Below are positions 31,245 to 33,457 of a stretch of DNA of 64,000 nucleotides, one piece after another. The number at the start of each line of letters is the position of its first letter. Position 1 is the first letter of the stretch. The stretch covers positions 3,038,001 to 3,102,000 of the forward strand of contig NZ_CP015579.1 in the NCBI RefSeq assembly GCF_002163585.1, in the 5' to 3' direction. Source of the DNA: Tatumella citrea. GTDB taxonomy: Bacteria; Pseudomonadota; Gammaproteobacteria; Enterobacterales; Enterobacteriaceae. The position numbers were made by a program, and so were the translations under genes. The notes beneath the pieces are model-generated. The model searched no databases. It saw only the letters and a list, made by a program, of their open reading frames with translations, and was not told where the DNA came from.

Positions 31245-32513
31245 CTACACCGCGGCGTCATCTTCCTCGTCAGGGCGAACCAGACTTATTACATGGAAGA
31301 TCACACTCAGTACCACACCGACCACAGTTGCCAGCGCCATACCTTTAAGTTCCACGGCTCCAATCTGAATTTTCGCCCCACTCACTCCGATAATTAAAAT
31401 AATCGCAGTCAGCATCAGGTTTTTCGCCTTGCTGTAATCCACTTTAGAGTCAATCAGCACACGAATCCCGGAAGCGCCAATCACTCCGTACAACAGCAGG
31501 GAGACACCGCCCATCACGGGAACCGGAATCGCCTGAATAATTGCCGCCAGTTTTCCGATGCATGACAGGCAGATAGCAATGACAGCGGCACCGCCAATAA
31601 CCCAGGTACTGTAGACACGGGTAATGGCCATTACACCGATGTTTTCACCATAAGTGGTATTTGGAGTGGAACCGAAAAATCCGGAAATCACCGTAGACAG
31701 GCCGTTAGCAAACATTGAACGATGCAGACCAGGATCTTTAATCAAATCACGCTTAACGATGTTTGCGGTGACCACCAGATGTCCGACATGCTCAGCAATA
31801 ACGACTAATGCGGCAGGAAGTACTGTCAGCATTGCCGCCCATTCAAAACGGGGTTTATAAAAGGTAGGTAAGGCAAACCAGTGTGCCTGCTCAACGCCGG
31901 TCCAGTTCACCATTCCCATAAAGGAGGCAACAACGTAACCCACTACGACACCAATCAGAATGGGAATAATCGCCAGAAAACCACGGAACAGTACTGAACC
32001 AAAAACCGTTACAGCTAAGGTTACCAGTGAAACAATCACCGTTTTGCTGTCTACAGCAACACCGTTAGCTGGCAGTAAGCCAGCCATACCTGCCGCTACG
32101 CTGGCCAGTTCCAGACCAATAATAGCAACGATGGCCCCCATTGCCGCCGGAGGGAACATCACATTCAGCCAGCCGGTACCTGCTTTTTTAACAATCAGTC
32201 CGACCAGGCAAAACAAGACTCCACACAATATAAAGCCACCTAAAGCAACCTCATATCCCTGAGGCAACAGCAGCAATACCGGAGAAATAAACGCAAAACT
32301 GGATCCCAGATAGGCGGGTATCTTTCCTTTACAGATAAACAGATACAGCAAAGTGCCAATTCCGTTAAACAGCAGAATTGTCGCCGGATTTACATGAAAT
32401 AAAATAGGCACCAACACCGTTGCACCAAACATTGCGAACAGGTGCTGCAGGCTGAGCGGTATGGTCTGAAGTAACGGAGGTCTTTCATCCACTGCAATAG
32501 TACGCCGGGTCAT
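31245..32513 (-). CDS. uraA: Uracil:proton symporter UraA
   Basis: Inner-membrane NCS2 transporter for uracil; 422 residues and about 14 membrane segments. The start MTRRTIAVDERPPL at 32513 has AAGGGGA 7 nt upstream; the frame from 32579 runs through a terminator hairpin and is not the start. The motifs AEHVGHLVVTANIV and FFGSTPNTTYGENIG (with the substrate and proton Glu residues) match UraA. It lies downstream of upp with two terminators in between (see leader ORF). Confidence 0.96.
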   Translation of the reverse strand: MTRRTIAVDERPPLLQTIPLSLQHLFAMFGATVLVPILFHVNPATILLFNGIGTLLYLFICKGKIPAYLGSSFAFISPVLLLLPQGYEVALGGFILCGVLFCLVGLIVKKAGTGWLNVMFPPAAMGAIVAIIGLELASVAAGMAGLLPANGVAVDSKTVIVSLVTLAVTVFGSVLFRGFLAIIPILIGVVVGYVVASFMGMVNWTGVEQAHWFALPTFYKPRFEWAAMLTVLPAALVVIAEHVGHLVVTANIVKRDLIKDPGLHRSMFANGLSTVISGFFGSTPNTTYGENIGVMAITRVYSTWVIGGAAVIAICLSCIGKLAAIIQAIPVPVMGGVSLLLYGVIGASGIRVLIDSKVDYSKAKNLMLTAIILIIGVSGAKIQIGAVELKGMALATVVGVVLSVIFHVISLVRPDEEDDAAV

Positions 32514-32526
32514 GCTGTATATCCCC

Positions 32527-32730
32527 TTAAAATGATACGGACATAAAAAAACCGACAAAATGTCGGTCCTGAAATACACACTGCTGCTGGTATCTTCCGG
32601 CGAAAAAAAACGGTGACATCACCGTTATTTTAAATGCAGTGTTGCTATCAGCGGGCAATGGCAGAAAAGACAGTAACCACGAGTCACCGTTACAGCGGAG
32701 TAAACTGCTGTTCAAACGCCGGGTATGCAT
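32527..32730 (-). CDS. Putative uraA leader peptide spanning an attenuator
   Basis: A 67-residue minus-strand ORF starts with ATG at 32730, 30 nt after the upp stop, and ends with TAA at 32527-32529, 13 nt before the uraA ATG. A GTG at 32748 is an alternative start. The ORF reads without a stop through both terminator hairpins; their U-tracts are translated as SPFFFAGR and RHFVGFFMS. A weak GGGG element lies about 10 nt before the ATG. This is the layout of the pyrL leader of pyrBI, but the peptide sequence is different. Expression is inferred, not shown. Confidence 0.55.
   Translation of the reverse strand: MHTRRLNSSLLRCNGDSWLLSFLPLPADSNTAFKITVMSPFFFAGRYQQQCVFQDRHFVGFFMSVSF
32545..32567 (-). 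terminator. Intrinsic terminator/attenuator immediately before uraA
   Basis: On the minus strand ACCGACA, loop TTT, TGTCGGT, followed by a T-run (seven T including the stem end). It ends 31 nt before the uraA ATG and lies inside the leader ORF. Confidence 0.85.
32603..32626 (-). terminator. First U-tract hairpin in the upp-uraA gap (terminator or pause hairpin)
   Basis: On the minus strand AACGGTG, loop ATGT, CACCGTT, and a run of eight T. It lies 35 nt upstream of the second hairpin. It could end the upp transcript or act as the pause site of an attenuator. The 5' arm AACGGTGA also occurs once more upstream (about 32683-32690), so alternative pairing is possible. Confidence 0.8.
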
Positions 32731-32759
32731 CTCTGTATTGCCCCACACAGATTTATTGA

Positions 32760-33386
32760 TTATTTAGTACCAAAGATTTTATCACCGGCATCACCCAGTC
32801 CCGGGATAATATAGCCATGCTCATTTAATCCCTGGTCAATAGAGGCCGTATACAACTCGACATCCGGATGTGCTTTTTCCAACGCAGCAATACCTTCCGG
32901 AGCCGCCACCAGTACCAGCACTTTGATAGCAAAACAGCCAGATTTCTTAAGCAGATCAATAGTGGCAATCATTGATCCCCCGGTCGCCAGCATCGGGTCC
33001 ACCACCAGCGCCATACGCTCATCCATATTGGAGGCCAGTTTCTGAAAATACGGTACCGGCTCAAGAGTTTTCTCATCGCGGTACACGCCGACTACGCTGA
33101 TTCTTGCGCTTGGAACATGTTCCAGAACCCCGTTCATCATCCCAAGCCCGGCACGTAAAATCGGAACTACAGTGATTTTCTTGCCTTTAATTTGATCAAT
33201 TTCGACAGGACCGTTCCATCCTTCGATTGTCACGGTTTCTGTTTCCAGATCAGCAGTCGCTTCATAGGTCAGCAAACTGCCAACTTCAGATGCGAGTTCG
33301 CGAAAACGTTTGGTGCTGACATCATGCTCACGCATCAGGCCCAGTTTATGTCTGACCAGCGGGTGTCTGACTTCCACGATCTTCAT
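32760..33386 (-). CDS. upp: Uracil phosphoribosyltransferase
   Basis: Salvages uracil to UMP using PRPP. The 208-residue protein has the E. coli length and the PRPP motif [12 protein letters not shown] plus the uracil-binding C-terminus [16 protein letters not shown]. Upstream of uraA on the same strand, so uptake and salvage are paired. The promoter region carries the UTP-sensing start sequence described separately. Confidence 0.97.
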
Positions 33387-33413: not shown

Positions 33414-33457
33414 AAAAAAAATCGCCGGATTATAGCGCTTTTTTACCAGTGCTAATA
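33414..33457 (-). promoter_or_regulatory. upp promoter with UTP-sensitive T-tract start
   Basis: Minus strand: a perfect TATAAT (33429-33434), five bases CCGGC, then GATTTTTTTTA (33423 down to 33413). A -35-like TTAGCA or TATTAG lies upstream. In E. coli upp the initial transcript GAUUUUUUUU allows UTP-dependent slippage and start-site switching, so low UTP raises expression. The same sequence here suggests the same control. Confidence 0.82.

What the first reader, a model, noticed from the sequence alone, without database searches (positions are those of the whole stretch)
32514..32760. pyrBI-like attenuator: a translated leader through two tandem terminators before uraA
The 246-bp gap between upp and uraA is much longer than a simple operon spacer. 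On the minus strand it holds two U-tract hairpins (stems at 32609-32626 and 32551-32567, 35 nt apart) and a 67-codon ORF (32730 to 32527) that starts 30 nt after upp, reads through both hairpins, encodes Phe runs at both U-tracts, and ends 13 nt before the uraA ATG. In E. coli pyrBI, a leader of this kind senses UTP: when UTP is low, RNA polymerase pauses in the U-tract, the ribosome catches up and blocks the terminator. uraA imports the pyrimidine precursor, so the same logic fits. I know of no description of such an element at uraA.
Basis: partly seen in the sequence, partly recalled or inferred. Interest (0 to 1): 0.82.

Follow-up and report, generated by a model that had tools for sequence, protein, structure and literature searches.

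The report
Ribosome-gated terminator before uracil transporter gene
Between a uracil-recycling gene and the uracil importer gene, enteric bacteria carry a conserved transcription stop signal, and where extra DNA has pushed that signal away from the first gene a short open reading frame usually bridges the gap, which suggests an undescribed ribosome-controlled switch on uracil uptake.

Summary
In this window alone the ORF is within chance (9% of shuffles match with ATG starts, 25% with any start). Comparison makes it interesting. All 224 of 226 distinct upp-uraA spacers with a called terminator have the same CCG..CGG hairpin; it is hairpin 2 here and is present in E. coli K-12. In 180 its stem starts 5-22 nt after the upp stop. 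In 44 it is 73 nt or more away; in 38 of these one ORF covers over 80% of the gap, against 3 of 40 stretches downstream of the terminator. An ATG at -4..+8 of the upp stop opens an ORF reaching the terminator in 12 of 19 insert clusters, 2.0 expected; this window's leader (ATG at +29) is not among them. Frame and position seem to matter, not the peptide. Best reading: a translation-coupled attenuator of the rph-pyrE/pyrBI kind. UTP as signal is inferred. Hairpin 1's stem is kept in 3 of 6 Tatumella, its U8 in 5, so it may be a pause tract. T. ptyseos has lost the leader. New member of a known kind.

The parts
33414..33434 (-). upp promoter -10 (TATAAT) and T8 initially transcribed run
   Evidence: Sequence; T run present upstream of upp in the relatives printed. 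PMC4448216 names upp-uraA of E. coli among cases of reiterative initiation (passage); the details are recalled.
32760..33386 (-). upp, uracil phosphoribosyltransferase; in most relatives its own stop codon abuts the terminator
   Evidence: ORF; Upp 92% identical to that of E. coli E69, L060
32527..32730 (-). Leader ORF, 67 codons (alternative GTG start at 32748, absent from the sister), through both U-tracts; its stop overlaps the AAGGGGAT ahead of uraA
   Evidence: same frame and length, without indels, in sister L002, but 17 of 19 changed codons are nonsynonymous
32603..32626 (-). Hairpin 1 (stem 32626-32609) and U8 tract (32610-32603): weak terminator and/or pause tract
   Evidence: stem kept in 3 of 6 Tatumella, U8 in 5 of 6
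32545..32570 (-). Hairpin 2: the conserved upp-uraA intrinsic terminator (ACCGACA-TTT-TGTCGGT plus U7)
31245..32513 (-). uraA, uracil:H+ symporter, the gene expected to be controlled
   Evidence: ORF; relatives; E. coli annotation of uraA next to upp

Best explanation
The upp-uraA gap holds an intrinsic terminator whose strength is set by how close a translating ribosome is. In most of the Enterobacterales sampled the ribosome finishing upp does this directly, because the upp stop lies 5-22 nt before the stem (like rph before the pyrE attenuator). Where the terminator has been pushed away, as in Tatumella, an ORF beginning at or soon after the upp stop carries the ribosome on to, or through, the terminator (like pyrL before pyrBI). 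When RNA polymerase is slowed in U-rich stretches at low UTP, the ribosome keeps up, the stem cannot form and uraA is transcribed; when UTP is plentiful polymerase outruns the ribosome, the stem forms and transcription ends after upp. Shown by sequence: the terminator, its conservation, and the recurrence, placement and openness of the ORFs. Inferred: that the ORFs are translated, that translation prevents termination, and that UTP is the signal.
For: The CCG..CGG hairpin with a T tract is called in 224 of 226 distinct spacers; pairs 0-4 of the stem are standard in all 140 distinct windows (anchored on CCG/CGG, which fixes the first three) and the T tract is 8 long in 100 of 140. In the 44 displaced spacers: an ATG at -4..+8 of the upp stop whose ORF reaches stem-20 occurs in 12 of 19 insert clusters against 1.98 expected, P about 1e-9; 11 of 18 against 1.87 without the repeat cluster and with the least favourable members, P 7e-9. 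The two parts taken apart: ATG placement in 13 of 19 clusters against 30 of 180 undisplaced spacers (P 4e-6); openness in 12 of 13 against 4.8 expected (P 8e-6). ORF cover above 0.8 in 38 of 44 upstream inserts against 3 of 40 stretches downstream of the terminator. Indels between the Pantoea repeat-bearing relatives are 3, 6, 9 and 30 nt (pairs of 72% identity or more), while changed codons are mostly nonsynonymous. Geometry matches the attenuators read with the same script: E. coli pyrE stem GGCGACTGATGAGTCGCC+T8, pyrL stop 43 nt past its stem start; in this genome the rph stop lies 7 nt before the pyrE stem and open frames cross the pyrBI terminator behind a T8 run. uraA falls with pyrB, pyrI, pyrE, codB and carB in a Salmonella table of 13 genes in which upp is not named (PMC9239280, passages).
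Against: No transcription-termination or translation data were available. This window's own leader starts at +29 and fails the strict -4..+8 test, as do 12 of the 44 displaced spacers; in Tatumella alone the ORF is within chance and T. ptyseos lacks it. Ordinary E. coli terminators also sit close behind stop codons (5 of 6 within 25 nt in a 50-kb sample), so the close spacing in most species proves nothing. The largest insert family is a dispersed repeat: of 17 rows away from upp-uraA, 12 have no stop in the same frame (three of the 17 read the same tandem stretch). In the 32 spacers with such an ORF a second frame is also open in 21. Clusters may share ancestry that blastn no longer sees (several Erwinia ones begin alike), which would make the P values too small; the downstream control rows are not independent either. 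T-runs upstream of the stem are only modestly longer than in shuffles, and similarly so in undisplaced spacers. L266 differs from L254 and L256 by a 2-nt gap. In two expression studies upp and uraA move together.
Confidence: 0.6

Rival explanations
1. Fixed partial terminator: it lowers uraA relative to upp and tidies the upp 3' end; translation up to it only sets a constant read-through and there is no UTP sensing.
For: Terminators close behind genes are ordinary; U-run enrichment is weak; upp already has reiterative initiation at its promoter (passage of PMC4448216).
Against: By itself it does not explain why displaced terminators are so often approached by an ORF; the geometry matches the two known UTP attenuators.
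Confidence: 0.22
2. Anti-Rho cover: the ORFs are kept because a long untranslated gap would invite Rho-dependent termination before uraA; the intrinsic terminator is incidental.
For: The displaced stems lie 73-412 nt from the upp stop, long enough for Rho in most cases (Rho's needs recalled), and ORFs cover most of these gaps.
Against: Stretches of about 95-319 nt downstream of the terminator are mostly not covered by an ORF (37 of 40 at 0.8 cover or less), although Rho could cut uraA there too; 32 of 34 ORFs started at the upp stop reach to within 20 nt of the stem or beyond.
Confidence: 0.1
3. Chance: repeats and GC-rich inserts have few stops, and insertion at the upp stop codon happens to leave an ATG.
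For: Repeat copies elsewhere are mostly open in the same frame; a second frame is open in 21 of 32; Tatumella alone is not significant.
Against: The dinucleotide-shuffle tests and the downstream control reject it, also without the repeat cluster, if the clusters are taken as independent.
Confidence: 0.08

Closest known systems
rph-pyrE attenuator (E. coli; Bonekamp et al. 1984, seen only as cited in PMC2784333, passages)
   Same: The upstream gene is the translated leader; its stop lies just before a GC hairpin of 18 nt with U8; pyrimidine gene downstream. In this genome the rph stop is 7 nt before the stem.
   Different: Would control a transporter, not a biosynthetic enzyme; the leader is upp; in Tatumella the gap is bridged by a separate ORF; UTP response not measured.
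pyrL-pyrBI attenuator (E. coli; annotation of pyrL, mechanism recalled)
   Same: A short ORF reads across the terminator, U-run ahead of the stem, stop 40 (here) against 43 nt (pyrL) past the stem start, structural gene soon after.
   Different: Lies between two genes and not behind the promoter; the leader starts 29 nt after another gene's stop; a second U-tract hairpin in some species; not conserved as a peptide.
Reiterative initiation at upp (passage of PMC4448216; UTP dependence recalled)
   Same: Same operon; the T8 initial run is present here.
   Different: Acts at initiation on both genes; the element described here would act only on uraA.

Membership tests
UTP-modulated translation-coupled attenuators (pyrE/pyrBI kind) | Intrinsic terminator between leader and structural gene | tested here: met
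   By sequence: hairpin 2 plus U7; 224 of 226 spacers
UTP-modulated translation-coupled attenuators (pyrE/pyrBI kind) | Open reading frame that brings a ribosome to, or through, the terminator | tested here: met
   By sequence only: upp stop 5-22 nt before the stem in 180 of 226; ORF started at the upp stop (ATG/GTG, -4..+8) in 32 of 44 displaced; in this window an ORF from +29
UTP-modulated translation-coupled attenuators (pyrE/pyrBI kind) | U-rich pause stretch ahead of the terminator | tested here: inconclusive
   T8 present here; 8 of 19 insert clusters and 40 of 180 undisplaced spacers have a T run of 5 or more in the 80 nt upstream of the stem
UTP-modulated translation-coupled attenuators (pyrE/pyrBI kind) | Read-through rises when UTP is low and depends on leader translation | not testable with these tools
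   Needs reporter or term-seq data; only indirect co-regulation seen
rph-pyrE type proper | Stop codon of the upstream gene lies just before the stem | tested here: not met
   In this window the upp stop is 190 nt before the called stem; met in 180 of 226 spacers of relatives, E. coli K-12 included (18 nt)
pyrL-pyrBI type proper | Leader is the promoter-proximal ORF of the operon | tested here: not met
   upp precedes the leader

The most novel reading that the evidence does not exclude
Enterobacterales, E. coli included, control uracil uptake with an undescribed UTP attenuator that uses upp as the leader; when DNA displaces the terminator, selection has repeatedly kept or rebuilt a ribosome track, making de novo leader ORFs out of inserted DNA, with frame and not peptide under selection.
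Probability: 0.45. Interest if true: 0.75.

Novelty: new member of a known kind. Interest (0 to 1): 0.62.

Why it matters
It would add the uracil importer to the small set of genes controlled by ribosome-polymerase coupling, in E. coli itself, where it can be tested at once. It would also give a natural series of replacement leader ORFs, a rare case in which selection for translation as such, without a peptide, can be followed.

Tried and rejected
Tandem double terminator as the conserved unit: hairpin 1's stem is missing in 3 of 6 Tatumella. A conserved leader peptide: 17 of 19 changed codons nonsynonymous between sisters, unrelated peptides in other clusters. The Tatumella insert as a repeat: single copy. 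Close spacing to the upp stop as proof: 5 of 6 terminators in an E. coli sample do the same. Known RNA family: none at Rfam gathering scores.

Literature: eight searches listed no paper whose title or abstract start describes termination between upp and uraA. Searches matched too many papers to list in full. The three papers that print 'upp-uraA' were opened at those passages: they give expression ratios, a promoter list and a remark on reiterative initiation. The primary papers on uraA and pyrE and the 2008 pyrimidine-regulation review are not held, and EcoCyc/RegulonDB could not be consulted, so 'undescribed' is limited to these searches.

Rows dropped: of 294 loci, 257 had upp and uraA together; 226 remained after removing identical spacers and Upp below 85% identity; 2 of these had no terminator called: L023 (a sister of L021 with one stem base changed, just missed by the caller) and L030 (a UraA-like gene only 39% identical). 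The family search found uraA in 246 of 392 genomes; only part of these was fetched. The first terminator caller missed some sites and was loosened; the L003 site was set by hand to the conserved hairpin. In one search frames were not corrected for gaps.

Full report
WHAT IS THERE. On the minus strand upp (33386-32760) is followed after 246 nt by uraA (32513-31245). The gap holds two U-tract hairpins, 32626-32609 and 32570-32548, and a 67-codon ORF from ATG 32730 to TAA 32527, ending 13 nt before the uraA ATG; its stop overlaps the AAGGGGAT ahead of uraA. The upp promoter carries a T8 initial run; PMC4448216 names upp-uraA of E. coli among cases of reiterative initiation (passage). The genome is a Tatumella by inference: genome G005 of the same genus has the same spacer as the named T. 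ptyseos contig (L004 and L031). The insert is unique in the genome.

IS IT MORE THAN CHANCE HERE? Not alone. An ORF reaching hairpin 2 from within 50 nt of the upp stop arises in 9% of dinucleotide shuffles of this insert with ATG starts and in 25% with ATG/GTG/TTG; for the sister 14% and 29%. The sister L002 keeps length, frame and stop over 29 substitutions in the spacer, but 17 of 19 changed codons are nonsynonymous. Among six Tatumella, five have an ATG-started ORF from within 50 nt of the upp stop to the terminator (L001, L002, L003, L005, L006, in differing frames and starts); T. ptyseos (L004) does not. ORF cover of the gap is 0.91, 0.81, 0.60, 0.50, 0.93 and 0.96 in L001-L006. Hairpin 2 is kept in all six; hairpin 1's stem in L001, L002 and L006, its U8 in five.

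THE CONSERVED TERMINATOR. I collected 294 loci; 257 hold upp and uraA together, giving 226 distinct spacers with Upp at least 85% identical. A terminator was called in 224, each with a CCG..CGG stem. In 180 the first G-C pair of the stem is 5-22 nt after the upp stop; in 44 it is 73 nt or more away. E. coli K-12 is in the first group, at 18 nt (15 nt if its A-U pairs are counted). Hairpin 2 of this window is the same element. Over 140 distinct windows anchored on CCG/CGG the inner five pairs are standard throughout, one of them varying between A-T, G-T and G-C, and the T tract is exactly 8 in 100 of 140. The close spacing is not evidence of control: 5 of 6 terminators in a 50-kb E. coli sample also lie within 25 nt of a stop.

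WHAT HAPPENS WHEN IT IS DISPLACED. In many of the 44 displaced spacers a start codon sits at the upp stop (TAATG, TAAATG, TAACGATG and so on) and its ORF runs to, or through, the terminator. Thirty-four of 44 have an ATG or GTG at -4..+8, and 32 of these 34 reach stem-20. The 12 without are L001, L002, L003, L004, L044, L053, L054, L175, L207, L272, L276 and L277, so this window's own leader, starting at +29, is among the 12. Grouped by blastn into 19 clusters, 12 first members qualify with ATG, against 1.98 expected (P about 1e-9); with the least favourable members and the repeat cluster left out it is 11 of 18 against 1.87. Placement and openness are each significant: ATG in 13 of 19 clusters against 30 of 180 undisplaced spacers (P 4e-6), and 12 of 13 open against 4.8 expected (P 8e-6). 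As a within-locus control, stretches of 95 nt or more downstream of the terminator rarely carry a covering ORF: 3 of 40 above 0.8 cover, against 38 of 44 upstream (P 1.5e-12; one upstream insert per cluster 2e-7). The six upstream inserts at 0.8 or less are L003, L004, L044, L175, L272 and L276. Some exceptions are near misses: L277's ORF stops 23 nt before the stem (read from the sequence printed), and L175 has a leader behind AAGGAGA starting 48-51 nt after the stop.

CAUTIONS. The largest cluster (16 spacers, in Pantoea, Erwinia, Yersinia and one unnamed genus) contains a dispersed repeat. Searched in three genomes, 12 of 17 rows away from upp-uraA have no stop in the same frame (three rows read one tandem stretch), so openness there is weak evidence. 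Among the Pantoea members compared (pairs of 72% identity or more) the indels ahead of the stem are 3, 6, 9 and 30 nt, whereas 6 of those 17 rows align with gaps of 1, 2 or 5 bases. One Erwinia member (L266) does differ by 2 nt from L254 and L256. In 21 of the 32 ORF-bearing spacers a second frame is open too. Clusters may share old ancestry; if so, retention of start and frame over sequence that has diverged beyond recognition would itself point to selection, but the P values would be too small. The 40 control stretches are not independent of one another either.

HOW IT PROBABLY WORKS. The same script reads the two known UTP attenuators: E. coli pyrE has GGCGACTGATGAGTCGCC+T8, and pyrL ends 43 nt past the start of its stem. 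In this Tatumella the rph stop lies 7 nt before the pyrE stem, and open frames cross the pyrBI terminator behind a T8 run. The uraA leader here ends 40 nt past the called stem start, with the U8 of hairpin 1 about 35 nt ahead of the stem. I therefore propose rph-pyrE-like control by upp in most species and pyrBI-like control by a leader ORF in displaced ones. For rph-pyrE, PMC2784333 (passages) says that translation is linked to attenuation and that regulation of pyrE by uracil level is achieved by moving the rph stop of MG1655 closer to the attenuator, but also that raised pyrE expression was not seen in the evolved strains.

EXPRESSION DATA SEEN IN PASSING. For: a Salmonella mutant table lists uraA (-1.3 log2) with pyrB, pyrI, pyrE, codB and carB, and does not name upp (PMC9239280, passages); under palladium uraA is in E. 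coli's list of most changed genes (-59) while upp is only named as down-regulated (PMC8533678, passages); in an HU study most values of the two genes run alike but in one column uraA is 0.07 and upp 0.39 (PMC2634741, passage; the column was not identified). Against a separate response: Upp and UraA fall together in a YohP proteome (PMC12719787, passage), and both are in the same down-regulated hub list (PMC9501238, passages). None of these isolates termination. T-run enrichment ahead of the stem is modest, so UTP sensing remains the weakest step.

NOVELTY. No paper in the searches was seen to describe termination control between upp and uraA (passages); the passages seen of a 2026 review on nucleotide supply (12 of 19) mention none (PMC13328217). 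The primary papers were not available. I class it as a new member of a known kind, with repeated replacement of the leader as the unusual part.

Noticed in passing
L138, L254, L010, L053 and relatives, upp-uraA spacer: A dispersed repeat of about 120 bp lies in the same place and orientation at the upp stop in Pantoea, Erwinia, Yersinia and one unnamed genus, and is mostly open in one frame at other sites of three genomes searched.
   Followed up: partly
L175, spacer positions 30-170: A leader with a strong AAGGAGA ribosome site, a T5 run and a terminator inside the ORF: the closest in looks to pyrL of the spacers I read.
   Followed up: no
L029 (same order, other family, UraA-like about 39% identical): A different hairpin with U5 lies 4 nt after the upp stop and about 20 nt before the aligned transporter start, so the arrangement may exist beyond the family.
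   Followed up: no
Own genome, L317 (upstream of pyrB): The pyrBI leader region has a T8 run and a terminator crossed by open frames, one of which ends just inside the pyrB start.
   Followed up: partly
Genome G504, uraA at C1:1110081-1111328: The uraA match carries an internal TAG stop, a possible recent loss of the gene.
   Followed up: no
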